A DNA stretch of 64,000 nt, taken from contig BLZA01000002.1 in the NCBI GenBank assembly GCA_013423385.1, positions 310,001 through 374,000 of the forward strand. Direction: 5' to 3'. This stretch comes from Naganishia liquefaciens (Eukaryota > Basidiomycota > Tremellomycetes > Filobasidiales > Filobasidiaceae). Below, in pieces: positions 7,167 through 64,000 of the stretch; position 1 is the first letter of the stretch; every line of letters starts with the position of its first letter. The notes under the pieces were generated by a model. The model was not told the origin of the DNA. It worked only from the letters and a program-made list of their open reading frames with translations, and made no database searches. Both the position numbers and the translations under genes were made by a program.

Positions 7167-10100
7167 ATGGCCTCGCGCCACTCCCGCTCGCCCACTCCGG
7201 AAGACGCGTCGTCATCCCGCTATCGAAATATCCGGTACAAATCTGACCTGTACGTGCAGGATGTTCCGACCGAGTCGTACACGAGGGATGTCGCGGATTT
7301 CAAAATCGTCGACGACGAACACGAGGCCATTGTCGTCGATAACGGTACGCTCCTCTTCTCTTGGCTCAATGGATTACTGACATATGATCCAGGCACGTCT
7401 CATCTCCGCGCCGGATTCGCATCCCATGCGAAACCATATATCAACGAGCCCAACCAGGCCGCCAAGTTTACATCCCGGAAATCTGCAAAGACTGCGCTGT
7501 ATGGACGGGATTGCGAGGTTGATAGCGCCGTACGGCCGAATATCAAGACCGTGTTTGATGGAGACATCTTGATGACGAATGAACTTCTCGTATGGCTGCA
7601 CCTTTTCAACCTGTCTTCCCTGCACTGACATGTCGCTTCATCTATTACAGGAGACGGCGCTTGATTACACCTTCCATCATCTGACACCGCTGTCTCGCGC
7701 TCTTAAAGGCAACCCTTCTCATGTGCCTCACCCGATCGTCATGACCGAACGCCTCGCCACGCCCCTCTATTCACGCAGCATCACTTCAGAACTCCTTTTT
7801 GAAGCGTACGGTGTACCCTCCGTGACGTACGGCGTCGATAGCCTCTTTGCATTCGAGCATATTCAGGCGCGCCGTAAGGGTCTTTTGAGTGGACGGCGCG
7901 CAAAAGGGGAGAGTGCCGCCAAGGGGGAGAGTGGGCTCGTGATCAATATGGGGCATATGAGTACGACGTTGATTCCGGTTTTGAATGGCAAAAGCATGAT
8001 GAATCGGGCAAAGCGGTGAGCTGCGGAGGCTTGAATTCTGTACTAGTGCTAATTTGGATCACAAGTATACCGTGGGGTGGCTCCCAGGCTTCAGATTTGA
8101 CCTTGCGTCTGATGCAACTAAAATATCCGGGATTTCCCATGCGTGTATCGCAACGTCAAGCAACCGTACGTTCTCATTGCTCCGACGCAAAGCATCACCT
8201 AATCTTTTTTCCCGGCAGTACATATCCCACAGGACCCTCTATTTTGCGACCGACTACGCCGCCGAAGTTTCCGCCCTTGCGGATCCGGAACGTATGAGCG
8301 CCGCATCAACGTCTGTTCAGTTCCCTTACCCCGTACCGGAAGGCGTTCAGCGGAGCGAAGAAGAGCTTGCAGCCATGGCGGAGAAGCGCAAGGAGCAAGG
8401 GAAAAAATTGCAAGAAATTACGCAGAAGCGGAATCGGGAAAGGGTTAGTCTTTGGGTGTCTTGCCTTGTGCTGTGTCGAATCGTTTGCTGATCGCGGTGA
8501 GCAGACGGAAAAGAATCAGATGGATCTGATGGGGCTGAAGGATGTAATGGAGAGTAAAGCGACGATGACCGACGAAGAGTTTGAGGTGGGTGATGATCTT
8601 GCTTCGCCGAGGCTGGCGCTGGCTGAGCAGGTTATGGACAGGACGTACTGCTGCACATGGGATATCAGAGCGAACAAGAGTTGATGCGGGATTTGCGGGA
8701 CTTGGAAAGGAAGGTCAAGGCTGCGAGGCTTCGTGCCGGGGAATTGGAAGACGAGGTGAGTCAATCATTGCTCGCACGTGCGAGATCACCGTTGACGGCT
8801 CAACCAGATCGAAGAAACCCCATCATTCCCGCTGCTCGACGTCCCCGATGCCGAATTGAACCCAGAGCAGCTCAAAGAGAAGAAACGCCAGCGCATGTTG
8901 AAGGCAGGGTACGAGACGCGCGTCAAGCTCAAGGCAGAGAAACAGGCCGAGCGGGAACGTTTGGTGAGTCATGTGCCCTTGAGAGGTCTTTTCAATGCTG
9001 ATGGGCCGCAGGCGGAGATACAGCGCAAGGACGATGAAGCGCGAGAAGAGGATCTGCAAGGATGGGCCGAAAAGCTGAAACAGGATCACTCGGTACGTCT
9101 CTGCTCCGCGTTGGGCCTCTTTATGTTTCTTACCCGGCTCGCCAGGCAACAATGCTTCGTATGCGAGAACGCAAGAAACGCAAGGCGCTATTGACGAATC
9201 GCAAGAGTTCGGCGGCGCAAGGACGAATGAAGCAGATTAGCGAGCTCGCGGCGGATTCGCCGGTCGGAAGGAAGCGGCGCAGGGGCGGCGATGGTGAGCT
9301 TTTGCGGACGCCAAGTAAGGCTCGTACTGACTTGGCTCCAGCTGATGATGGATTCGGCGCCGACGACGATGACTGGGCCGTTTATCGGGAGATTGTATGT
9401 TCACGTGTCCTGTGTCGCCTCCCTCGCTTATACCCCTGTGCAGGAGGGCACAGAGGATGTCGATGAAGAAGCCGTCGATCAGGACCATATCCAAGATCTC
9501 GAAGCCAAACTACTCAAATACGACCCGACATTTACCGAAGCCGACACGATGGAGTCTATCTCGAACCGGCAGTCGGCCCTCGTGCATGCTTTCCTTCGCG
9601 GAAACGAGCCCCAGGCTGGCGTGACATCTGAGGAAACCGAGCCTGGGAATGGGGAAGCCGCCAACGTGTACCAGCAGCAAGAAGAAAGCCTCGCGCAGGC
9701 ATATCGGCTGCATCTGAATGTCGAAAAGATCAGAATTCCCGAGGTGTGGTTCCAACCGAGTATCGCAGGCGTCGATTGTGCCGGGATCGCTGAGCTTGCG
9801 GGATACCTGCTCGATAGCTTTGGCGAAGAAGACAAGAAGAAAATGATGCAGGTGTGTAGTCGTCTGGTATCGAATGTCCTTGTGCTAACGCGCCGCAGTG
9901 CATCTACGTGACCGGCGGGTGCTCGCTCATCCCCAACCTAAAACCGCGTCTCGAACGGGACTTGACCATGCTTCTTCCCTTCCGTGCACCACTCAACGTT
10001 ATCACCGATACCTCGATACCGGCAGACTGGCCCGTCGCCGCTGAATGGCCCAAAGATCCACGTGTGAGCGCATGGCAAGGGATGGCGCACTGGGCATCGA

Positions 10101-10216
10101 CAGATGAGGCGCGATCGGCGCAGATTAGCCGTGCCGAATGGGAAGAGTATGGTGGCGAATGGCTCAAGGAACATCGGTGGAGCAATTGGTGGGATGAGGG
10201 GCATTATGTAGATTGA
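7167..10216 (+). CDS. ARP5: actin-related protein 5, INO80 chromatin-remodelling subunit
   Basis: About 820 residues after removal of roughly ten short introns (first at 7345-7392, others near 7590, 8017, 8162, 8442, 8586, 8756, 8964, 9091, 9394 and 9851). The first two exons join to give the actin-fold nucleotide-binding motif VDNGTSHLRAGFA. The actin-like fold resumes with ETALDY and the segment around YGVDSLFAFE, then the phosphate-2-type stretch GLVINMGHMSTTLIPVLNG. A long, charged, coiled-coil-rich insertion (about 8330-9400) interrupts the fold; such an insertion is characteristic of Arp5 and contacts Ies6 and the Ino80 ATPase in yeast. The C-terminus (about 9720-10216) returns to actin fold with a CIYVTGG motif and ends in WAKEHRW-like Trp-rich sequence. 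It acts in the nucleus in nucleosome sliding. The start ATG follows a clean leader and is the first in frame. Confidence 0.93.
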
Positions 10217-10740
10217 TACGTAGCAATAGATATGTGCTGCCATGATGGACATCGACTAGGCCTCGAGTGTCGTCATTTGAATCCAGAGGCGACGCATCCG
10301 CCATGTTCCGCCCTTTCCATCGTCAAGGGGGAATCGAGCATTGGTGAGTGTAATATCACAATTTATGTGCAGAAAATTGGGAAGAAAAGGGAAGCGCCCA
10401 GATCATTCAGATCGCTGATCAGATCAAACAGGCTCTGAGCAATTTTAACAATGATGGTGTCATGTCTAAGACTAATCTGGACCCCTCGCAAAGGCTATGT
10501 TAGCGTGCCTTGTTGGTTATTCTCGCGGTCAGAGTCGCCGTTTTGCGCTCTTTCTTTGCCACCTTCTCTTATGTTCATCTCGCAGCATTTGAGTTGTTGA
10601 AAATGTAGAAAAATGCGAGAAGGACTCGTACTGAAATATCCGGCCAGCTAGGTGACGGCTTGGCACCCGGTGCAATGGTCTTTGTTTTAAACTTGCTCGT
10701 TCGCCCCGTCAGGTCTCTTCCAAGGCTGTTTACCAGGTTT
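10217..10740. other. intergenic, no gene seen
   Basis: This is the 3' flank of ARP5. Only short frames occur and composition is AT-richer around 10430-10660. The tandem-repeat block begins just beyond this stretch. Confidence 0.5.
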
Positions 10741-13700
10741 TATCGAGCAAGCTTCTGAAACGCGCTGGCCATGCGACATGCCAAACGTTTGTTCAGAAGT
10801 AGCGCACCGACACGCGCGACCATATACCATTCGTGGCCTCGTGGCCTCCGGGGTACAGACGTCGAAAACTGCTGGCAAGACCGTGTGGCCGAATAGCGGA
10901 CCTCTTGTCGTATCCATGCTCATCTCAATTGCCACGCCGTGGCGCTCGCCGACGTCGCGTGCCGAGCAGGGAGGGCAGGAAATATCTCGACTGAAGGCTT
11001 GTAATGGATGCGAGATGGCCATTTCTCGTAATCTTTCATGATACGAGCGGCGTCTACCTCTGTCGAGCCAATGGGAGATGCTTCACCATACCCGTTCCCA
11101 AACTCTTGTCTATAAGGCTCAGCTACACCGCGTGCCAAGTCGTTGATCTCCAGCAGCTCGCGCAGCAAAACGCGACCATGGTGAATCAGAGCACCCCGGG
11201 CAAGCGATAGGCTGGACGAGTGACAAGCTCATCAAGGTAAATTTCTTATGGCCAGCTCGACTGCAGGCATCGCGTGCCACGCATTGATCTTTTGTCGCGT
11301 TACGCGATCTCAGTGGCAAGCGCGACCACTCAATCGCGGCACCCGGCGCGCTCACGACAATACCTGTCGCACCGACTTGCCCAGGATGTAGCATGGTCTT
11401 CTACGTACCCGTGTGGTGCTGTTTTGCCGCCGTAAGGTGACCGCTGACACGACGTGCCAGGGGGAAAATCCAGTCGGAATGGGAATTGCAGCACACGAAC
11501 AGTGGTTTCGGCTGAACTATGAGGCACCCGACGTCGGTTCCTCCCATGAGAGCTGCTCTGTCACCCGTGGAGGTGTCTTGGGGGCTCATCTGCAATTCAG
11601 GCCCAATTAACCGCCTCTCGCTGCTCTAGATGCGCCGCGTGCCAGACATGTGTTGCGGACCGCTGCAATCGCGACCGGTTTGACAGTTGGCACGCGGTGT
11701 AACGACGACGACAACTGAGCTTCTGACCGGGTGGCAATGGTAACGAGCCTTGAGAGTGTCTGTACAGATGACAGGGGTCGTGCTGAGGCGATCATGGTCA
11801 CGGTTTGCCAGAGGGGCGGGGGAGGAAGGTGGGCAAGCAATTTTCGCCAAGCTCGCAGCGATGTGGCATCCGATGTGATCCTTTGCGTTTCGAGCTACTC
11901 TCGCCGATGCTCGGGCACAACGGGAGACTGTCTACAATGCATAGTCCTTGATTTCTTATCTGAGGCTTCAGCTACACCGCATGCCAAGTCGTTGATCGCC
12001 AAGCAGCTCGCTGGCATATGCAGGTGATACGTGATGATTGGCACCGGCGGTGCAGACGGCATCACGAGACGCCGGGACCGGTCAGGGCGAATGAAGGGCT
12101 AGTACCAATCTCGTGTGGACCATCATAACTCAATTGACTCCACTCGGTGCACCGCATGCCAGCCGTTTGTGACGCGACATCTTTGGCTGCGAAGTTGGTA
12201 CGCGCGACCGTGTTCATTCGGGGCACGCGACGTACAGACGGCGCCATCCTCTGCGTCGACCGGCTAGTCTGTGAGCAGAGCCGGTCTCAAGTTTGCCGAG
12301 GTGATCACGCTTTGATTTGCTACACTCAGTGCGCCGCATGCCAAACTCTTGTTGCCCAACGCGGGAGAAAAAGCGCGACCACCGTGGCATCCGGCGTTTA
12401 GGCTGTGCGATTGGGTCAACTGACCAGTCGTAGCGATACAAGAGCCTTTCAAAGATCGATAGGAGACCCAGGTGTGACGCAGCCACAACTATCGGCACGG
12501 GGTGCCAACTTGAAAGCGACTTTGAAAAGGAATCTTGACAGGCGGCTCTCGCGGCTGGCAATGATGTGGCATCCCACGCAACCGCATCGTTTCGAGCGGC
12601 CCGCACTCAGCATCAGATACAAAAGAGGTACAACTACACTGCAGAGCCAGCCATTCTCATCTGGCAGCTCTGGCAGCACCAGATGCCCTGTTGCAACACA
12701 CAGGCGTTTGGTAAAAGCAGTGCGACCGTCTCGGAACGTGGCAACCGACGTTCAGAGGCCGCCCACTGCTTTGCCAATTGATCAAACATGGACAGAAGCA
12801 CTGTTGGTCTCCATCTATACTACGATTGCCACGTTGTCGTTGTCGCTAGCATGGTGTGCCAACGCGAAAAATCTGGGGACGGTTTGAGCAGAGATTCTGC
12901 AACGGTATTGTCATCCGATACATAGAGCGCGTCGTCTGAGTCGCCGACCGTCGAGCGATTCGGCAGAGCCTTTGAACGAATTGCTGAGCTGATTGTGCAC
13001 TCGTTTCTCCCGTTCAATACATCGCATGCCAGACATTAGTGTAGAGAAGCCCGCTGGCACAAGTACAACCGTGTTCTGTTGTGATTTTGGTCTGTTAAAG
13101 GCGCCGATATGGGAATAGGCAAATTGGGTGAACTTGCGACTACTGCTCTTGTGGTAGGTACCTATGCGTTAACAGCACTGCGGTAATTGCTGCCATTAGG
13201 AGCCAACGTGAAAGCTGTCTTTGGGGGATTACGACGGACGGCTAGCAACTATTTGAAATCGGCGCAATTGCGTGTCATTCTAGCTGTACTGTTGCACCAC
13301 GAGGTAGACTCAAGGTGTATCTACAACATCTGATCAAGTGATCTCGCCATGGGAGCGTCGTTTACACGGCCTGCCAAGCGTTGTGCGTATGGGATGTCAG
13401 TGTCGATATGCGATCCAACTGGGTCGTGGTATCAGAGGTCCAGACGAGGACATCGGTTGCGCTCTCTGGCTTGGAAGCCGTTAAGAGCTGCTCAGCCGAC
13501 TTTTTTGAGCCGTTTGATTGGTCCGTTTCACCGCATGCCAAAAAAACTTGTTGCAAAGGGATCGCGGGGGCGTAGCGGCCGTCTGCGAGCCTTGGCGTGG
13601 CACGTGTGGTGTAGCCGTCAGCATCAGGCCCGCTGGCGCCGGGCGAATATGTCCCTCGAGTCGCCTTGTTTCCGACAATGCTACAAACCAGGTTGCGGTG

Positions 13701-14650
13701 ATGATCGATGCGATTCCCCCGGATGAAAGAAGCGCAGCACAACCAGCACAACAGGTTCGCTAAATACTTTCGGCAATCGCCTGGCACGCGATGTCACCGT
13801 CTGCGTCTGAAGCTTTCTTTGTGCCTCGTGTGGTGGAATGGGAGGTCGTCCGCATCCTACGGCCATATAATCTCCTCTTCAAGTGCTGGCTACATGGCGA
13901 GCCAACCTTTAAGGGTGAAACGCTGCCGACACGCGCGCGGCCGATTCAAATGTGGCTCCCGGCGTTCAGACAGTGAGAGCTGCCATGCTGACCGGACACA
14001 GCTGTGCAGAATGCCTTGTCTTGTCTGCCGATGCTACAACTGCTGCACTCTGGTGATCACTCGTACGGGGTACCATGAGGTCCTCACGCGCAAAATAGTC
14101 GAAAAGGATTTTGAAGACGCACTATGCGATCATTCGGCATCCGGTGTAAACGGCAACGTTTCAAGCTAGTCTAATACTCTACTAGGTAAATTAGCAGATC
14201 ATGATCAAAACAGGGGTAGACGACCTAATCCCAGAGCTCTGGCTACACCGGGCACAAGGTGTCCACAACGCACAGGTGCCGAGGGTACTTGCGACCGCGT
14301 TTGTATCGTGGCACCTGGGGTGGAAACTTCCAGCTCTGCTGCGCTAATCGGGTTGAAGAAGGTGAGCAGCCTTTCTCGGACCCTTACATAGTAGGCCCGT
14401 GGTGCCGTGATGCCCATTGACACGAGGTGTCGACGTTTTGAGCAAAAGCGCGTAAGAAAGACGGACGACGGCTAGCCACGGGTTTGCAGGCAGTGAAGCC
14501 GCCACTCTTCCGAATTGTTCTGATACTTGAGCAAATGTATCAGATGACCGCCTATACTGGGGTAGAGCCAGACAATTTCGTCTTGGCAGCTCTGATGGCA
14601 CCGGATGCCAAAACGTTTGTCGTCCGTCGCGGTATGCAAAGCGCGACCGG
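10741..14650. repeat. degenerate tandem satellite, unit about 174 bp, about 23 units
   Basis: No gene-like frame exists here, but a short core recurs at regular spacing. Its consensus is roughly CACCGCATGCCAAACGTTTG. I find it near 10774, 10951, 11126, 11268, 11446, 11630, 11801, 11976, 12150, 12331, 12496, 12677, 12850, 13020, 13194, 13365, 13529, 13893, 14064, 14246, 14420 and 14599. Steps are 142-182 bp, mostly 165-182, with one missing unit at about 13700. Two further marks keep phase with it: GCGCGACC about 30-50 nt downstream and a TGGCAYCCGGCGTTYAGAC-like block about 65-90 nt downstream (for example 10841, 11336, 12384, 12745, 13949). Units are strongly diverged, so the array is old. 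All units point the same way. The array stops just before the tRNA-Asp gene at 14691. The function is unknown. Confidence 0.8.
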
Positions 14651-14690
14651 CCGTCCAAACATTGGGGCTGAAACCGACAAAAAGGTGATC

Positions 14691-14785
14691 TCTCTCGCCG
14701 AGAATCGAACTCGGGGCGGGCGCGTATAATGCTCAGACGAGGCTGAACTTGACAAGCGCCAATGTTACCATTACACCACGAAAGA
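14691..14785 (-). tRNA. tRNA-Asp(GTC) with intron
   Basis: Read on the minus strand the acceptor stem is TCTTTCG pairing with CGAGAGA, the D stem is GTGT/ACAT, the anticodon stem is GGCGC/GCGCC and the loop carries GTC. The T arm is CCGAG-TTCGATT-CTCGG. An intron of about 25 nt follows position 37. A TTTTT terminator lies just downstream on the minus strand (plus positions about 14679-14683). The copy at 29469-29563 differs by one base, inside the intron. Confidence 0.93.
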
Positions 14786-14950
14786 TGGTTGGATGTTTCG
14801 TTTTGCAGTTAGAGCCTATAATGTTGTTTGTCTGCACACGTCATCCAACCCGATCATCCCTCTTGCGCCCACCGCTGTCGACAAGCAATCTGCCTTCCCT
14901 CTGGCGATACATTTCGCACCGCAGCGTCCGAGGTCGTGCTGATCAGCATC

Positions 14951-17900
14951 ATGGTATACGTCACATGGGCACAAGGGTTCAAGGAAGCCAACGTAAGCAT
15001 CTTCATCCGCAAGCTGACCGACGTTGACGGCTACCAAGATATCCACCACGGCTTCCCTTAAACTCGAAACCACTCTCCCTCACACGCTTCCCAACCTCAG
15101 TCAACGGATCTTCCCTTCTTACGTTTCCTCGGCAACACTATGGTCCGATCTCCTCGCATCTGGTCTTGCGCCCCCATCGTCAGGCAGCCAGCCGTTTAGC
15201 TCGGACACGCCCGCGACAAGGCAAGAAGCGATCAAGAAATGGCGGATGTGCTTGGAGCGGGCTGATTTGGTGAAGAAGAAGGTTGCTGCCATGGGAGGAC
15301 AAGTTGGTAAACCCGTAGGCAGGAGTGTGGGAGAGGCTAGTGGCCAGGGAGATATGTCTGCCAAAGCAGGCGACCCGCTGGATAGGCTCAAGAGTCAACG
15401 CTCCAAGCATGATGAGGCGGAACAAATCAGCATCCTGCGCCGCTCGAGCACGATCAAGCGTCGTTCCCGCCATTCGTCCTCGAATTCGCATCGCCATGGA
15501 GCGCATCCGTCCGAGGACAATGCTAAATCCCTACATTTGCCGCTCTGGCATGACGCCGATGCGACATTCCTCACGCCCCTCTCATCAGCGCAAGTCGAAG
15601 CCATGGTCGTCCGGCCGGAACTCTCTCCCGATCAACGAGCCCTCCACGCGACGTGGGAAAATATATACAACGCTGCCAATCCATTCGTCGACTTTGCGCC
15701 CTGTCTTTCGCCTTCGCGGACGCAAGGCGTCACAAACTCTATCAAAGTAGAACAAGGGATCGGCGCCAACTGTTCCGTCGTTGCGGGGCTCAACGTGCTC
15801 GTCGCGCACAACGCTCGATGGGGTACCGCCCTGGGACTGCGGAATTTTGTGCCGATTCGAATCAAAGATAAAGGCGTTAATGGGAATGAGGCGTCGCAAG
15901 TGCGGTATTGGAGGGTCAAGGTGTTTGTCAATGGTGCTTGGCGCAGTGTAAGTCGGTATATGTCAATCGCGTCTGGATCTAATGTGACCTGCAGCTTGTA
16001 ATAGACTCCCGCTTACCCGTGTCATCGACAACAACCCAATCCCTTCATTGTGTTCTGACCCCATTCGGATCGGACTCGCAGCCGTCCCTCGAATCAACAT
16101 CCTCACTCCTGTGGATTCCTCTCCTCGAGAAAGCATACATGACCATCATAGGCTCCTACGCCTTTCCCGGCTCGACACCCGCCACCGACATCCATACCCT
16201 TACGTCATGGATCCCCGAGCGCATCTCTTCTTCCGGCTCTCAGGGCTTTCCGCGGGAACGTACGTGGTCACGAATCACCGAAGGCTGGAATCGCCGTAGC
16301 TTGATGATCACCCTCGGCACGGGCGCACTCGTGGGCCGCAACGGGGTCTCTGACGCACGGGTCGTTCCGCTGCATGCGTATGCAGTTGTTGATGTCACGC
16401 AGGAGGACGGAGGGGAACGAAGGATGCGCGTGATGAATCCGTGGAAAAGAGGGAGAACGCATATGGATGATGGCAGGGCGTGGACGAGGGATCTTTTAGA
16501 GTCGCTGGCGGAGGAAGCGGAGGATGAAGAAGGGGAGGAACCGTCAGGTGCGTATTCGCGGCTTTCTTTCATTGGTATATTAGCTTACCTTTTCCCCCGT
16601 AGATATCTGGTGGATGAGCTGGGATCAGGTGTGCAATACCTTTGACACGGTGAATCTGAATTGGGATACGAGTCTGTTCGAGAATACCGAGACCGTACAT
16701 GGGTATGTCTGCTACCATACTTCGGACCACAGCCCCATCTGAAGCCTTGTTTTGCGTGCAGGGTGTATACAGGCGAAGATGACAGCCGTTAGTTGAGCCA
16801 TGACTCGATGACGTCCGCTGATCTCTTCCAATGCAGAGCCGATGTCAATCAGTGTTGCGGCACCTACCTCTGGGTCCGACGTTTGGATTCTCCTTCAGCG
16901 TCATCAGTCTACCTTTGCGTCCATGACCGAAGTCGATGATACGCAAATGAAGCCAAGTCCCCAACACAAAGCAATCAAGATGGCGCTGCAGTCACTGGAA
17001 GATACTTGTACAGGACCCGGTTCTCGAGATATTCGCCTAGACGATCAAGGTCCAGTAAGTCGTATTCGCGGAGTCATGGTTGTTGTGACTCACGCTAGAA
17101 TTGCAGTTGGAGTATACGACATCGACGTGGATTTTGGTGAGGCTCGCTCTTCTTCATGATCGTCTCGTCTCTCATTATTTCATTAGCTGCAACATATCTG
17201 TCTTATGGACAGGGCAAGCCTTTTCATCCGGCCTAAATTCGAAATCCCAGACGATATCCGTGGTCACGATCTCGCATACACTGTAACAGTATATTCGGAT
17301 GCCAATATTCACGTGGAGCGTAGGCCCACGGCATATCCGTATGAACAAACAGTGAGTGGTGTCGTGACCTTCAGTCACCTGCAGCTCAAGTATTGTCTCA
17401 ACAGCTTGCGGTTGACTTTTCAGGCCGCTCGGCAGGCGGTCACTCGGGAACGCCAACCTACATGTATAATCCCCAGTATCGCATTCAATTCAAGCATGAT
17501 CCATCTTCGAAATCAGAGGCTCTTACGGCCAGCATTAGATGTTCGTTGAAGGGCGAGGAAAAGACCAGCTATAATCTGAAGCTAGTCTGGAGTAGTGGCC
17601 GCCGGGTAACCGAGTATGTTAACATCAGTTTTGCTTTGCTCGCTTGTCCTGAATTTGGCTTCTAGGCTAGAAGCCCAAGACGTCGTTGCAGATTCGGGAG
17701 AGTACCGATATGGCCAAGCAGCAATATCGAAAAGTATTACAGGTGAGGCCAGCACTGTATCGCTGTCATGCGTTTCTAAGTCTTCATTTGCAGCTGGAAC
17801 ATACACTCTCGTGGCCTCTTCATTCGAGCCTGGAAAGGCCTCGCAGACATCGTTAAAGATCGATTCAACGATACCCCTAACTGTTTTGCCGATTCCTCAA

Positions 17901-29259: not shown

Positions 29260-29468
29260 GATGGGCGTTATCGGCGACGTCGACTCTCCTGCTACGAGTC
29301 ACACTGCATGGGAGCATGTTTTGGCAGCAGAGAGGGCATCCGGCCATCATGCATGCAGACAGCGGATAGCGAGGGGGATTGCTTCCGCGCGCGAGATGTG
29401 GCCGCCGAAAGCTGAATTTGGGAAAACAAAACGCTCCATTCTTTCGACTTCAATCCAGTCATCAATCA

Positions 29469-29563
29469 TCTTTCGTGGTGTAATGGTAACATTGGCGCTT
29501 GTCAAGTTCAGCCTCGTCTGAGCATTGTACGCGCCCGCCCCGAGTTCGATTCTCGGCGAGAGA
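29469..29563 (+). tRNA. tRNA-Asp(GTC) with intron, second copy
   Basis: Same stems, anticodon and T arm as the gene at 14691-14785. The only difference is one base in the intron (ATTGTA here, ATTATA there). A T5 terminator follows at about 29570-29574. Confidence 0.93.
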
Positions 29564-30071
29564 GTTCATCTTTTTGTCGTTTTTGGAGAGCAACCTTTGC
29601 CCGTGAACGTGGTCAGTATTTTTCGTTTGCGCCTGAATGGAACTTGCGCATGACTCCGCAGATTTCCGGTAAAGTAGCAACCTCCGGACCTCGTATAGAA
29701 AACAGTTCACAGGTAGGGCGGAGGGACGCCGCCAATTTCTACCACTGCTCAAGCCACCTCGATGCTTGGCGCTCAGCAAGCTCTCGGTCGCGCTTGACTT
29801 CGCACAACTCGTGAACATGTATACTATATATGAAGACCCTAAGATTACAATCGCGAGTGTTGACCAGCGAACCACTAGAGATTGCCACTACAAAAAGGTT
29901 CTGATCCCGTCACTACTTCCTCGTCTTGGCCGGAACTGCGTGATCGATTGCGTAGGTGATAAGCTCGTTGCAATTGACGGCTTTGGTGAACGCAGATTGC
30001 AGGATTCCCTTCTGCTCACTCAAGAGTTCACCGACTTTTTGTCGCGCATTGCCAGTCGAATGGACGAAATC
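29564..30071. other. gap with a possible C-terminal extension of the neighbouring minus-strand gene
   Basis: On the minus strand the frame of the gene ending at 30072 stays open beyond its TAG to about 29925. That stretch has protein-like composition (for example ARQKVGELLSEQKGILQSAF). The rest, 29575-29920, shows nothing. Confidence 0.4.
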
Positions 30072-43645: not shown

Positions 43646-44397
43646 ATGTCTTTCGCCCATACTTTCGGCATGACATGCGATGCTTGGGGCAATCCATTGC
43701 CCAGGGATGACCAGAGGATAGAACGAACCGACTATAGCGACTTCGGCGGTATCTCAACGACGACAAGCGACCACAGCAACCAAAGTTATCATATCACTGG
43801 AGGGGAGGCGAACGTCGCCCAGTCCATCCAACCTTTTGCCAACTGTTGCGTACAATGTGCTTCCGGGGTCTCCACCGACCTAAGGGATGTGCAGGGATCG
43901 TGGGCGTGGACGATTCCTTCACGTAATGATCGCTACAGTCAGTATTCGGGATCAATGTCAATGCACAGGCCACCTGTCGCAATGCAGGATCCCTCATCGT
44001 CGCATCCTCAGATGGATCAGACGTTCTCTACGAACAGCGCATTATATCAGCTGCTTCCTTCCCACCCCGGACTGGGAGTTGGAGGGCGTTCGGAGCCATA
44101 CGAGCAGAGAGAACCGGAAACATCGTATGCTGACCCAGTGGTCCCGCCGTCGTTAAGCAGTACAAGATTGACCTTAGATGGGCTGCCATATGACGAATCG
44201 TTGTTAACCAGCCTATCTGAAGCGTCATCGCGCATCAAGGACGTTCTTCGATATACGGGGCTGCATGTGAACTCGAAGTAAGTCTTCTTCACTACTTTGA
44301 TGAATCTGTAAGAAAAGAAGTCACTGATGACAGTGCTCTATCGGTCCTGGCCCTAAGGTGCCGTGAAGGAGAAACTCTCCGTCCAAGCAAAAAGTGA
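43646..44397 (+). CDS. hypothetical protein, about 230 residues
   Basis: A single open frame from the ATG at 43646 runs 211 codons. A canonical GTAAGT donor near 44279 and an acceptor near 44333 (branch-like CACTGAT) would extend it by about 20 residues to the TGA at 44395. Composition is Ser/Gln/Pro-rich with no transmembrane segment and no known domain; the only structured-looking part is the C-terminal helix LTSLSEASSRIKDVLRYTG. The spliced stop sits inside the T-tract terminator of the tRNA-Ile gene on the other strand, one base from the tRNA. It may be a small regulatory protein or a chance frame. Confidence 0.45.
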
Positions 44398-44398
44398 T

Positions 44399-44487
44399 GA
44401 TCAATAGCGGGATCGAACCGCTGACCTTACGCTGTACTATCCAAGTAGGATATTAGGCGTATGCTCTACCGACTAAGCTAACCGACC
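44399..44487 (-). tRNA. tRNA-Ile(AAT) with intron
   Basis: On the minus strand the acceptor stem is GGTCGGT with ATTGATC, the D arm is GCTT...GAGC, the anticodon stem is TACGC/GCGTA with loop CTAATA giving anticodon AAT, and the T arm is AGCGG-TTCGATC-CCGCT. An intron of about 17 nt follows position 37. A T5 terminator follows (plus about 44390-44394). Confidence 0.9.
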
Positions 44488-45111
44488 AATTGTTGTTTGA
44501 GACCATTGTTGATAACTTGTATTATGTTACAAAGTTATGCCTTTTGCGCCTGGACCCTTAGCACGCCTTTTCCCAGAGATCAATCTGACTTTGCTCCGCC
44601 GCTCACTCATTCTGCACTGCGGATCGCAGAAGAGAGTTTGAGCCGTACCGTACGACTACGATCCGGCAGCTCTACAAATATGTTGGCATTGACAACCTGC
44701 TGCCGCTGACCCTTGGAACCTCCCTGTCGCTCAGGCCGGTAACAAAGCACCCGCGACTGAGATGAGTCTATGCTGAATGGATCTTTCACACGAGTCCTCC
44801 ATGTCCAGACGACTAGCCTTGCGGCTGACGGCGTTGCTCATGAAGCATGCCGTATGGCTCTTGCTAGCCTTCGTAGCTGAGGGGGTCGGTTCTGGCGTGC
44901 TGGATTCTGGAGCGTCTTCGCTAGCGTCGCTTCGCCTGCCTTCTACCTGTTTTCAAAGCTGTCGTTTCTGTCTGCTAATATGCTCTTGATCGAAATGACA
45001 TCTGGGGGAGCGGACGTCCATCTTCCGTCGACCAAGGCCCTGAGCTGCTCCGATGCATGGCCAGACGTTTTATGTGGTGGACAAAAAGCTCGACGCCTCG
45101 GGAAAAAGGAT
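44488..45111. other. gap between two tRNA-Ile genes
   Basis: No gene is recognised. A stretch at 45041-45080 resembles the core of the 10.7-14.65 kb satellite (GCTGCTCCGATGCATGGCC followed by AGACGTTTTATG). Confidence 0.4.
45041..45080 (+). repeat. possible isolated relic of the 174-bp satellite core
   Basis: It shares about 25 of 35 positions with the satellite core when small gaps are allowed, and like the main array it ends next to a tRNA gene (45112). A single diverged copy cannot be distinguished from chance by eye. Confidence 0.25.
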
Positions 45112-45199
45112 GATCAATAGCGGGATCGAACCGCTGACCTTACGCTGTACTATCCGAGTGGATATTAGGCGTATGCTCTACCGACTAAGCTAACCGACC
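45112..45199 (-). tRNA. tRNA-Ile(AAT) with intron, second copy
   Basis: The mature part is identical to the gene at 44399-44487. The intron differs in length by one base and in two or three positions. A T5 terminator lies at plus positions about 45104-45108. The two genes are direct repeats about 710 bp apart. Confidence 0.9.
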
Positions 45200-51912: not shown

Positions 51913-54744
51913 ATGATGTCTGGTGGATATCGCAAATCAGGAGCTTCGACACCCCCGCAGCCAGCGCCTCCGTACTCGGCATCACCGCAATCTGAATTGC
52001 GCAACAGGCGGTCGTCGTCCATATCTATCACTTCTCGCACCCACTTTGCGGAACCGCCGTCACGACGCGGTTCGAATCATTCGAGGAATAATTCGTCGTC
52101 GTTAACCACAGGCGTCGCTCGCGTCCCGTCCGTCGATTGGCAACCAACGTGGGATTGGCCAAGAGGGACATCTGGTACGACGCCACAGCTTGAACAGGTG
52201 TTTGAAGCCGCGCAGCAGTGGACGCATAAGCCAGAAAGGTATCCGTCACGTCGATCATCTGGACAACACTCGACAGATCGAAATAGCGGTGGTCCGTCAA
52301 TACCCATACGGACGCGTTCAAGAGACCTTTCACAATCATCTTCAGGACCATCCGTTGTTCCCGCGTCTCGTCGGTCACGGACACATACCCTTCATTCTCA
52401 CCAACCCCGTCATCTCCATCTGCAACGCGTCATGTCACGCCCCACAAGCGCTCAAGAAGAACTCTACGCGGACTCTCATGATTTCGACAACGACGGTGAC
52501 GGTGAAGCTGATCGCGGGATGACGGAAGGCAGCAGCGGCTTCCTCACGAGCGATAACGAATTCACGGACGAGCCGGAATCCTTTGGTCAGCGCCCGACTC
52601 CCACGCGACGGGACTTTGCGATGGGCGGTCAGCAAGGGGATGGCAAGTTTGTCGATGAGCCCGAGGAGATACGCGGTGCTCATCGAGCATCAGCACGCAC
52701 ATCTGCCAAAACACATCGTCTGAAACGCCCAATACGCAAGTCGAGTATCAAGACGCTGATACCCTCAGCGCCATCGTCAACGACATCCACGACGTCCTCT
52801 CGGAAATTCAGCGACACGTCGTTCCGACAGAGACTCATCATTGCGAGCTTGATCATCCTCGGGCTCTTTCTTCTCGGGACCGTCATCGTGCTCAGCACGA
52901 TTCAACGGTATTTCCGTATCGAGGACTGGGCGTATCTTTCCGAGAACGAGATCGGCGGGTGGACGAACGCTGCCGGCGAAAACGGGGCGATACCGCCACT
53001 GTTGGACCTCAATTCCTCGCGTCCGACATCGGACTCGAGCGAGTACCACGACGAGAGCGAGGAGGATGCAGGCATGTGGGGACCGAATGGGCGTGGAACG
53101 GGTGGATATTGGATGCAAAAGGACTGGGATGGCGTTGTTCGGAATACAGAGTCGTGGGACAGGCTATACAACGTTTCATTACGGTGAGTCCCGCTTGTCA
53201 GGAGTCGGGACAAAGCGACATCAGCTGAATCTCATTATTAGTGCCGGCGAGCGAATGCCACGAATCATTCACCAAACTTGGAAATCTGACGTGTTGCCCG
53301 AAAAATGGAGAAAGATCTGGATGGAATGTCGCGAGGGCATGCCAGATTAGTGAGTCGCGTGGCAAATGGGCAAAGATACAGGGCGTTAAAGTGTCACGAT
53401 AGCGAGTACATGCTCTGGACCGACGATCAATCTCGTCGTTTCATTTCCGAGAAATACCCTCAATTCCTCGCCATGTTTGACGGCTACGAATATCCAATTC
53501 AGCGAGCCGATGCCATTCGATACTTTATCCTGCATCATTTTGGCGGCATCTATATGGACCTGGACATTGGGTGTAAACGTCGTTTGGAACCTTTGATTTC
53601 GGGCGATTGGGATGTGATTCTGCCCAGAACCAAGCCCGTCGGCGTGTCCAACGACTTGATCTTTAGCGCCCGGAGACACCCCTTTATGGAAGCGACAATC
53701 CACGGTCTGATCGCATTTGATCACCGATACGTCACCAACTACCCGACAGTCATGTTCAGCACGGGACCAATGTTCTTGTCGGCCCAGTATGGATTGTACT
53801 CTTCAGCGCACCCGCTCACGCCCGTTCATCCGCGACCGCAAATCCGGATCTTGCCGAAATCCCTCTATGGAAAGAACGCCAAGCCCGAGGAGGCACCGCA
53901 TTCCTTCTTTGCGCACTACTACGGATCGTCGTGGCACGCGGACGATGCGGGATTCATCACGTTCTTGGGAAAATCGGGCAAGCTGTTGATGTATGCTGGC
54001 ATGGCCGTCTTTGTGTTTGGCGGGCTGTGGTACTGCTTTATACGGCGATCAGGCAAGGGTGTGCGATCAGGAAAGCGGAGTCTCCGGCGGCTGATCGTCG
54101 GCGACGTCATTGGCGGTGGCTCAGGTCAGGAGGGCGGCGCCTACCATATGGTTTCGCTCTTGCCCACCTCGTCGGCACCCGGTAGTCGTGCTGCTTCACC
54201 TACACCACATACGTCGTCGGACGACGATACCATTACGAGCGAAAATACAGAGGACGGACGCGCACAAGCGATTCTCGATGCTGTCCGACGTGCTGGCAAT
54301 TTCATCTTGGCGGCACCGGCGACACTTCTAACGAGCAATTCGAGACGCGGACAAAATCAAAACGATAACGCCCGATCGGGTGTGCTCTACTTTTTACCGG
54401 CGTTCTTCGCACCTCTGGCATCGTCAGAAAGCGCATCGTCATCAGGGCAAGGAAGAAGAGCGCGAACGGCTTCGATGGCGAGCATGCTTCCGGCGACGCG
54501 TACCCGCGGAAACGGTGTCAGACGATCACGTCGGTCAAGTCATACGCAATCGAGGCTCGAATCTGGGAACTACCATCAGCCGCAGTCGATGTCGTTACCC
54601 CATCAAGCGGTACAGGAAGAGGATGAGCGGTACCTCTCTGGCGAGGATACCAAGATGTTTACAGACCCGCCGCCGTCGTATGCGCAGGACCCGTCGATGG
54701 CAGAGGTCGACCCGTTCTTAAAGTCGCAAGAACGGTCGACGTGA
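51913..54744 (+). CDS. GT32 mannosyltransferase, inositol-phosphoceramide (SUR1/CSH1)-like
   Basis: About 905 residues, three exons (introns about 53185-53241 and 53349-53399). Residues 1-310 are disordered (Ser/Arg-rich, then acidic). A transmembrane anchor lies at about 318-342 (LIIASLIILGLFLLGTVIVL). After a linker the catalytic domain begins at RMPRIIHQTWKSDVLPEKW, then ADAIRYFILHHFGGIYMDLD, where DLD is the DXD metal/nucleotide-sugar motif, and HYYGSSWHADD near its end. A second hydrophobic segment (LLMYAGMAVFVFGGLWYCF) and a basic/Ser-rich tail follow. That layout matches fungal IPC mannosyltransferases in the Golgi, which add mannose from GDP-Man to inositol-phosphoceramide. It is more than twice the length of yeast Sur1 because of the two tails. 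The ATG at 51913 was chosen over the in-frame upstream TTG; 51916 is equally possible. Confidence 0.88.
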
Positions 54745-62009: not shown

Positions 62010-64000
62010 ATGCAGCTCTCCCATCAGCGCATAGAAGAGCTCTCTCGCGAATGCCTCCTTTATCTGCAACGTCGAGCACGGAATCGCCTGACCGCTGCTC
62101 CGCGCGCAATCACCAACCCGGAACTCCGGAAATTTCGAACATGGCTCGCTCTGTTCTTCATGAATGGCGCAATGCAGGAAAAATTCAAGTCCTACATTCG
62201 GGATAAGGGAAGAGCTCGGAGACGCCAAAGAATGAGGCAGGCGTTCGAGGGATACATGCGCGGAGTGGTAGACGTGGCGAATGGAAGATTACTCGTATGT
62301 CGCTGTGCGATAATCACTGGGAGATGCTCAGGAGTCGATGTCATTACAGTCACAAGCACAAGCATTGCTACCTAACTTCGCGAATCTTGCCCAGGCAACG
62401 CCTATAGAGCCTGCAGAATTTGACTTTGACCTTCATGAAGCAGACAAAAGAGCCATTCACCTCGTCCGTTGGTTCAAGCACGATTTCATGCGATGGGTCG
62501 ATCCCATCATGTGTCCACGCTGCAGAAGAGAGACGAAACATCAGGCGTCGTATGGACCAGAGGGGATGTCTTTGGAAGAGCGGCGCGTTGCGGGAAGAGT
62601 GGAAATCTGGAAGTGTAGCGATGATGATTGCGGAGGAGTTGATAGATTTCTGCGGTTAAAGTGAGTACTACGAACTACCCTCGCGTGATGTTGCAAGTGA
62701 CAAAGACCTGTCCAGTGACCTCGGGGAGCTTCTCAAGTCCCGTCGAGGCCGATGTGGCGAATTCGCCAACCTCTTCACTCTCTTCCTAAACGCGACTTCC
62801 CTGCAGTGGCGCATCGTCATCAACGCAGAGGATCACGTATGGAACGAATACTGGTCGACCTCTGCCCAGCGGTGGATACACCTTGATCCGTCAGAGGGTA
62901 CAGCGGATCAGCCCTTGGTATATGATCTGGGATGGGGCAAAAAGCAGAGTTACTGCATCGCATTTGGACCAGCGGGGGCAAGGGACGTGACGAAAGGATA
63001 TGTCAGTGATTGGGGGGATGTCGGAGGGTGTCAAGAGAGGAGAAGGGCGTGGACTGAGGAGGATCTTCAGACGGTGAGATTAAATTTTCGTTTCACATTG
63101 GTGGTATAGTAGGCTGATACCATATCAGATGCTTGCTGAGTTCACCACAAACCGTCGAACGGCAGACTCTTTGGCTCGTGTGTCTTTCTTGCCTTCAGCG
63201 GAGGAACTGAGACTCCAAGACGTCAAGGAAGATACCTATCTATCGGACTACGTAGGGCGGGTGAAGGCAGCGAGGGAAAAGAACCTCGGCGGGAGGACGA
63301 GTGGGACCCTGGATTGGCGCGCGCGAAGGCAAGAAGTTGGACTAGACGTGGATAAGGCAGAGGTCGTCCCCCGAGAGACCAGTGAGCCGGAAGAGCTCGC
63401 ACGCTGCCTCGATGTATGCTGACTTGATACAGGTGGCGAGCCGATTTCGGATATGACAACCGGACTCGCTGATATTACCCTACATGGCTCGGCAGACTTG
63501 ACATCGTCCTCATTGAATCCCGACACCACGATGCTCTCGCTCACACCACTCGAAACGGACGAGACGGGTAGTGCGTTCCTCTTTCCAGGGATTAAGGCCG
63601 CCCAGTCATATTCGCTGGATGTCACCTTTCGTATATGCAAGCAAGATGGACATGATGGAGCGGATGGAATGGCCGTGACTGTCCTCTCAATTCCATCAGA
63701 AGATGTGGAAGGATACCGCAATGCGACAGGCCAAGTACGAGTCGTGGGCGACGGAGGAGCGGGACTGGGGTATACTGGTCTAGGCACGTCACAAGATTTC
63801 GCTATCGAGCTTGACACATACCGAAGGTGCGTTGGTTACTGGTCTGGCCAGGAAAGTGACTCACCCTAAATTTTACTCTCCCCAGTGTCGACCGTTGTAA
63901 TGATCCTCCTACGCCCCATGTCTCGTTGCACCAGCCTCCAAACTCGCACCACAAATTTGCTAAGGCATGCACGGCGCCGCACACCATCCCACACCTCGCC
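62010..64000 (+). CDS. PNG1: peptide:N-glycanase fused to a ConA-like (L-type) lectin domain, 3' partial
   Basis: Begins at the ATG at 62010. Introns lie near 62296-62349, 62661-62715, 63074-63128 and 63395-63444 (A|GTGAGC...TACAG joins A to GT, keeping frame). Domain order: helical N-terminus; zinc-binding cysteines (CPRC near 62515 and CSDDDC near 62617); then the transglutaminase-like core. The core has Cys in SRRGRCGEFANLFTLF, His in EDHVWNEYW and Asp in WIHLDPSEG, the full Png1 triad. After a charged linker comes a lectin-like stretch: AQSYSLDVTFRICKQDG, DGADGMAVTVLS, GGAGLGYTGLGTSQDFAIEL and DTYRR. This is the carbohydrate-binding pattern of L-type lectins (G-x-G-L-G-Y and A-I-E-L-D-T-Y). 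The gene leaves the window within that domain. Png1 strips N-glycans from misfolded glycoproteins for ERAD; the lectin part may help it hold glycans. Confidence 0.85.

What the first reader, a model, noticed from the sequence alone, without database searches (positions are those of the whole stretch)
10741..14650. Old tandem satellite with a nucleosome-length (about 174 bp) unit in a gene-free block
A conserved core recurs 22 times in the same orientation, mostly at 165-182 bp, with two further marks (GCGCGACC, and a TGGCAYCCGGCGTTYAGAC-like block) kept in phase. Units are so diverged that the array is easy to miss. A 174-bp unit equals a fungal nucleosome repeat length and recalls centromeric satellites. 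The persistence of sub-motifs despite general decay suggests some motifs may be under constraint, though this is inference.
Basis: seen in the sequence. Interest (0 to 1): 0.78.

Follow-up and report, generated by a model that had tools for sequence, protein, structure and literature searches.

The report
Old two-type tandem array, fixed-spacing modules
Between two ordinary genes of a yeast-like fungus lies a 4-kb row of about 23 worn-out repeats in which the distance between two mirror-image DNA motifs has mostly stayed at exactly 111 bases although most letters between them have changed, which suggests that spacing rather than sequence once mattered there.

Summary
The array is real. It runs from about 10608 to 14650 in a gap without recognised genes, between ARP5 and a calpain-family gene of a basidiomycete close to Naganishia: 23 units, mean spacing 174.0 bp, SD 9.6. 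Raw autocorrelation and TRF miss it; held-out profiles and motif periodicity show it.

(1) Units are of two types, A and B, alternating in 18 of 22 neighbour pairs. (2) The third mark is the reverse complement of the core, so most units carry an inverted pair of one 12-bp motif. (3) From the minus-oriented motif to the next plus-oriented one the distance is exactly 111 bp in 13 of 22 intervals (shuffles: at most 4), while the other gap varies; the interior is nearly saturated and not coding, and no RNA structure held up. (4) I found copies at only two other loci (97.6%, and 77-95% identical), so it is not a satellite of every centromere.

Best reading: an array once selected for the spacing of paired binding sites, now drifting: substitutions between copies are not depleted in the motifs (34 of 203, 30.4 expected).

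The parts
10608..14650 (+). whole array: 23 numbered units plus part of one more at the left; two types A and B; ends about 40 bp short of a tRNA gene
10661..10783 (+). first 123-bp module: TGGCACCCGGTG ... 111 bp start to start ... m1 at 10772 (both cores exact)
11337..11459 (+). module, m3 11337 to m1 11448, 111 bp
11522..11644 (+). module, m3 11522 to m1 11633, 111 bp
11688..11810 (+). module, m3 11688 to m1 11799, 111 bp
11864..11986 (+). module, m3 11864 to m1 11975, 111 bp
12039..12161 (+). module, m3 12039 to m1 12150, 111 bp
12221..12343 (+). module, m3 12221 to m1 12332, 111 bp
12385..12507 (+). module, m3 12385 to m1 12496, 111 bp
12739..12861 (+). module, m3 12739 to m1 12850, 111 bp
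13953..14075 (+). module, m3 13953 to m1 14064, 111 bp
12332..12396 (+). best example of the inverted pair around an A-type linker: m1 CGCCGCATGCCA, GCGCGACC at 12373, m3 TGGCATCCGGCG at 12385
13427..13540 (+). module that departs from the rule: 102 bp here, 113 bp in the C3 copy (11-bp length difference at 13484)
11348..12012 (+). 665 bp present here and missing from the C3 copy (3-bp microhomology GGC at the junction)
14691..14783 (-). intron-bearing tRNA gene, read by eye as tRNA-Asp(GTC); the array lies on its 3' side; not reported by ARAGORN or cmscan
   Evidence: sequence read; multi-copy in the genome; misses
9899..10216 (+). last exon of an ARP5-like gene (left neighbour)
   Evidence: Arp5 chains, best E 1.2e-10
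16019..16645 (+). calpain-family peptidase domain (right neighbour gene; ORF 15024-16001 just before it matched no Pfam family)
   Evidence: PF00648, E 3.1e-10

Best explanation
Shown: an ancient tandem array whose conserved skeleton is a 123-bp module made of two inverted copies of one motif (TGGCAYCCGGYG ... CRCCGCRTGCCA) at a fixed 111 bp start to start, joined by linkers of variable length that keep a few type-specific words (GCGCGACC in A). The interior is nearly saturated with substitutions, yet its length is mostly unchanged. Inferred: the motif is a binding site for a DNA-binding protein that reads both orientations, and the module was kept for the geometry between its two sites, for instance a dimeric complex or a nucleosome-like particle with one site near each edge, repeated about every 174 bp to build a block of ordered chromatin next to a tRNA gene. 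Also inferred: the function has lapsed or weakened. Pieces of the array, at one locus together with the tRNA gene, were copied to two other loci, and all copies now drift.
For: 13 of 22 intervals between successive m1 sites have the best m3 exactly 111 bp before the next m1; the most frequent distance in 500 shuffles was shared by at most 4. Leave-one-out from the m3 side: 13 of 18. Linkers (20 measured, 5 of them using m3 places set by the spacing) run from 41 to 62 bp. In-register interior identity 0.35 (A-A) and 0.31 (B-B) against about 0.25 off register. Inverted relation of the motifs: the enriched word CGTGCCAA occurs 15 times on plus and 10 on minus, 1.3 expected per strand. Pairing between m3 and m1 is no better within a unit or module than between random ones, which fits two separate sites rather than a hairpin. 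Block conservation: 0 of 600 simulations. Copies at C3 and C24.
Against: No depletion of substitutions in motifs between copies (34 of 203, expected 30.4; core 9, expected 10.7; 121 of the 203 come from one diverged stretch of C24). Length differences now occur inside modules (2 bp at 12972, 11 bp at 13484). No protein, chromatin or expression data. No match to a known site was tested. The nucleosome idea rests on length and a weak 10-bp signal that nearby periods almost equal. 9 of 22 intervals do not give 111: 2 are off by one, the others have weak m3 matches or changed length.
Confidence: 0.45

Rival explanations
1. A plain decayed satellite or tandem duplication with no function ever; the motifs and the 111-bp spacing are chance survivors of uneven mutation.
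For: Motifs evolve at the same rate as the rest between copies; only three loci in the genome; length changes now happen inside modules.
Against: With interiors at about 1.5-1.9 substitutions per site between units, the indel to substitution ratio between the C1 and C3 copies predicts 4-5 indels per module (which used 3 indels per 53 substitutions; with the 2 that lie in the array, about 3), yet 13 of 18 have none net; block contrast exceeds 600 of 600 simulations.
Confidence: 0.25
2. Array derived from a short mobile element (MITE-like, 123 bp, 12-13 bp terminal inverted repeats) that was tandemly amplified.
For: Inverted ends at fixed distance; copies at other loci.
Against: No solitary 123-bp copies were recognised (pattern hits outside the three loci are single and unlike); linkers are also homologous within a type; a dead element would not keep its length while its sequence saturates.
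Confidence: 0.12
3. A row of small non-coding RNA genes or one long structured RNA.
For: Modules fold slightly better than shuffles on both strands (mean z -0.72 and -0.78); one central stem with G-U pairs exceeded 200 of 200 column permutations.
Against: That stem pairs only about half of its positions and does not stand out for Watson-Crick pairs (best P 0.095); RNAalifold finds 5 and 3 pairs with little energy; no Rfam match except a SNORA9 hit at E = 1, 19.6 bits against a cut-off of 85; ends do not covary.
Confidence: 0.1
4. A live or dead centromere or pericentromere satellite.
For: About 174-bp units in alternating A/B types recall alpha satellite (PMC2729386, passages seen); dead layers of such satellites diverge.
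Against: Clusters at 3 loci among 28 contigs, 1-4 kb long, among ordinary genes; centromeres of the related genus Cryptococcus are regional, tens of kb, rich in LTR retrotransposons (PMC12633873, passages seen). Diverged arrays elsewhere could have been missed, because a profile search of the genome was not available.
Confidence: 0.05

Closest known systems
Primate alpha satellite (about 171-bp monomers, A and B types; dead layers beside centromeres)
   Same: monomer near nucleosome repeat length, two alternating types, a short protein-site-like motif kept in phase, old divergent layers
   Different: three short loci instead of megabase arrays at every chromosome; a motif pair in inverted orientation; fixed length of only one part of the unit; no sign of homogenisation; fungus
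Budding-yeast point centromere (CDEI-CDEII-CDEIII; recalled, not tested)
   Same: two conserved ends around a stretch of similar total size whose length matters more than its sequence
   Different: here about 22 in a row, interior about 53% GC instead of AT-rich, same motif inverted at both ends, no CDEIII-like element looked for
MITE-derived tandem satellites (recalled)
   Same: short inverted ends, constant length, tandem arrangement
   Different: interiors saturated while length is kept; no solitary copies recognised
Subterminal transposase-site arrays such as those of En/Spm (recalled)
   Same: many copies of a 12-bp motif in both orientations
   Different: fixed 111-bp spacing over 4 kb and no transposase or element ends recognised at the window locus

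Membership tests
tandem satellite array | head-to-tail homologous units at regular spacing | tested here: met
   held-out profiles and periodicity
tandem satellite array | units alike enough for standard tandem-repeat detection or autocorrelation | tested here: not met
   TRF and base autocorrelation negative
centromeric satellite | present at each chromosome, one main site each | tested here: not met
   clusters at 3 loci only by DNA and pattern search; diverged arrays may be missed
centromeric satellite | CENP-A chromatin | not testable with these tools
   no ChIP data
nucleosome-phased satellite | unit length near the nucleosome repeat length | tested here: met
nucleosome-phased satellite | 10-bp WW/SS periodicity in phase between units | tested here: inconclusive
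   coherent signal P 0.01-0.05 for WW and 0 of 300 for SS at 10.0, none per module; 10.0 is the highest of 26 periods by a narrow margin
structured ncRNA array | covarying helices | tested here: not met
   one G-U stem was significant by permutation but pairs only about half of its positions
protein-coding repeat | open frame, period-3 conservation | tested here: not met
   23-35 stops in every module frame of 22 modules; period-3 conservation at noise level
MITE-type element | terminal inverted repeats at constant distance | tested here: met
MITE-type element | dispersed solitary copies with target-site duplications | tested here: inconclusive
   no solitary copy recognised by patterns; target-site duplications not looked for

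The most novel reading that the evidence does not exclude
An ancient chromatin element of a new architecture: a row of about 22 particles, each defined by two inverted protein sites at exactly 111 bp with an interior free to change, so that selection acted on spacing while sequence saturated; the three loci are relics or late copies of an element that may still be active in related species.
Probability: 0.25. Interest if true: 0.75.

Novelty: new variant of a known kind. Interest (0 to 1): 0.5.

Why it matters
Arrays of this age are invisible to standard repeat finders. Here a simple measure, the fixed distance between two motifs against the free length of the neighbouring linker, separates selection on spacing from selection on sequence. 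If relatives keep the 111-bp rule, this is a ready model for a chromatin element defined by geometry; if they do not, it is a warning that motif survival can mimic constraint.

Tried and rejected
Raw autocorrelation and TRF: negative. Hairpin between m1 and m3: a first count was out of register and was redone with 12-mers; no excess within units or modules. RNA: rejected as told above. Coding. Enriched 8-mers: the motif leads the array list (log10 P -10.8), but GC-rich blocks elsewhere in the window reach -8.5 and -10.5, so that test alone would not do. Whole-genome profile search: models R1 and R2 were built but could not be used on this genome and went into no search; diverged arrays elsewhere therefore stay possible. 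Exact-core pattern TGGCA-N113-TGCCA: 47 places, of which 6 lie in the window array and 3 in the C3 copy; the other 38 against 15 for the backward control show that these words are common here, but they form no cluster like the array. Papers: searches found no description of such an array in Naganishia or relatives in their listings; only passages of PMC12633873 and PMC2729386 were read.

Full report
Setting. The window is G000:C1:310001-374000 of a 19.4-Mb assembly in 28 contigs. One ORF (53305-54744) has its best named matches in Naganishia albida (82%), N. cerealis (75%) and N. vaughanmartiniae (73%); unnamed sources reach 95%. The array lies between the last exon of an ARP5-like gene, which ends at 10216, and a calpain-family gene (PF00648 in 16019-16645). 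Just right of it, at 14691-14783 on the minus strand, I read by eye an intron-bearing tRNA-Asp(GTC) gene; ARAGORN and cmscan did not report it, but the sequence is multi-copy in the genome.

Observation. Base autocorrelation and TRF show nothing at 174 bp. Motif scans do: 14 plus-strand core hits where 2.0 are expected, with a best period of 174.0 bp (R 0.95, 0 of 2000 random placements). 23 unit starts give 22 spacings, 142-188 bp, mean 174.0, SD 9.6. In a held-out test, left-half profiles find 7 of 7 A and 5 of 5 B units on the right; right-half profiles find 7 of 7 A and 3 of 4 B units on the left plus an unlisted B unit at 10608; the best of 4 x 100 shuffled sequences gave 10.3 bits, real hits 7.3-37.7. 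A profiles did not list B units above 5 bits, except one 5.1-bit partial hit at 12908. By my type calls, 18 of 22 neighbour pairs alternate between A and B.

Anatomy. The core m1 (CRCCGCRTGCCA, plus) and the third mark m3 (TGGCAYCCGGYG) are reverse complements; both orientations are enriched (13 minus-strand core hits, 2.5 expected). A units have GCGCGACC in the linker from m1 to m3. From m3 to the next m1 the distance is exactly 111 bp in 13 of 22 intervals when m3 is found by a matrix that leaves the interval out; the most frequent distance in 500 shuffles was shared by at most 4 intervals. The other nine gave 131, 70, 110, 13, 73, 102, 83, 112 and 130; four of these had m3 scores below 3.2 bits, that is, no clear m3. 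From the m3 side, 13 of 18 best m1 sites lie at 111, the rest at 110, 102, 119, 118 and 112 (the weak m3 sites were left out of these 18). Linkers run from 41 to 62 bp (20 measured; for five units the m3 place was set by the 111 rule). For the 20 modules used, the same five places were so set.

Interior. In-register identity of positions 16-95 is 0.354 for A-A, 0.306 for B-B and 0.264 for A-B, against about 0.25 off register; B-B at a shift of one is 0.293, so for B the register rests mainly on the ends. Every module frame has 23-35 stops in 22 modules (about 36 expected), and conservation has no period of 3. Folding is slightly better than shuffled (mean z -0.72 and -0.78; 100-nt controls elsewhere 0.12). 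One central stem passes a permutation test with G-U pairs (0 of 200) but not with Watson-Crick pairs only, and pairs about half of its positions; the permutation does not keep the relatedness of A and B units. I take it as no support for an RNA.

Copies. DNA search finds the array at C3:60673-63619 (minus; window 12013-14802 at 97.6%, 11196-11347 at 97.4%) and C24:656447-657533 (77% for 10854-11349, 94% for 11196-11411, 95% for 13050-13371) and nowhere else; the remaining matches are the tRNA. Patterns agree: TGCCA-N22-48-GCGCGACC has 41 places, 5 in this array, 4 in C3, 2 in C24; TGCCA-N42-72-GGCAYCCG has 70 places, 4, 2 and 3 of them; the rest are scattered. At C3 the array lies between two copies of the tRNA in the same orientation (C3:60673-60801 and 63661-63788). 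C3 lacks window 11348-12012 (3-bp microhomology), and C24 joins 11411 to 13050 (4-bp CCCG). So pieces of an already old array were copied later, once together with the tRNA.

Constraint. Between units, motif blocks are kept better than a uniform star-like decay allows (0 of 600 simulations; 0 of 240 with less conserved settings). Between copies, they are not: 34 of 203 substitutions fall in motif sites, 30.4 expected (P of so few or fewer 0.79); core 9, expected 10.7. Length changes also fall inside modules now (2 bp at 12972, 11 bp at 13484). Given the divergence between units, 4-5 indels per module would be expected at the C1/C3 ratio of 3 per 53 substitutions; one of those 3 lies outside the array, and without it about 3. 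Thirteen of 18 without net change has P 5e-10 if each had a 10% chance, 3e-5 if 25%. I conclude that spacing was under selection for a long time and is no longer, or only weakly, in these copies.

Mechanism. Two inverted sites at a fixed distance and an interior of free sequence suggest a two-fold symmetric complex that spans the module. A nucleosome-like particle is one candidate: the unit is 174 bp, and a weak 10-bp WW/SS signal is coherent between modules, but other periods are nearly as strong and the mirror correlation of GC is only 0.11. This step is inference.

Known systems. Alpha satellite shares monomer size and A/B types (PMC2729386, passages). Cryptococcus centromeres are regional and rich in LTR retrotransposons (PMC12633873, passages), unlike this locus. 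I know of no described array with this rule; the paper searches behind that were made, in an open-access library only.

Noticed in passing
window 14691-14783 and 29463-29583; C3:59223, 63661, 65283; C19:348846: Copies of an intron-bearing tRNA, read by eye as tRNA-Asp(GTC), missed by ARAGORN and cmscan in the window; four copies lie within about 6 kb on C3, two of them flanking the array copy.
   Followed up: partly
L025 and L023 (C3:45001-65000): Four tRNA-Glu(CTC) genes in the same neighbourhood as the C3 array copy: a dense tRNA region.
   Followed up: no
whole genome G000: CRCCGCATGCCA with up to one mismatch occurs 277 times against 140 for the backward control; only the first 100 places were listed, so the excess outside the arrays is unexplained.
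   Followed up: no
L026 about 7555-7640 (C24, right of the array copy): The phrase TTGCATCTATTATTGTC occurs twice within about 60 bp next to the end of the C24 copy (sequence).
   Followed up: no
C24:656447-657215 (L026): The C24 copy holds a tandem duplicate of one A unit (window 11196-11349 matched twice, 77% within a longer match and 94%), a younger duplication inside an old array.
   Followed up: partly
window 44396-44488 and 45111-45199, minus strand: Two further tRNA genes, 44398-44487 and 45111-45199 by cmscan; ARAGORN lists only the first, without an amino acid.
   Followed up: no
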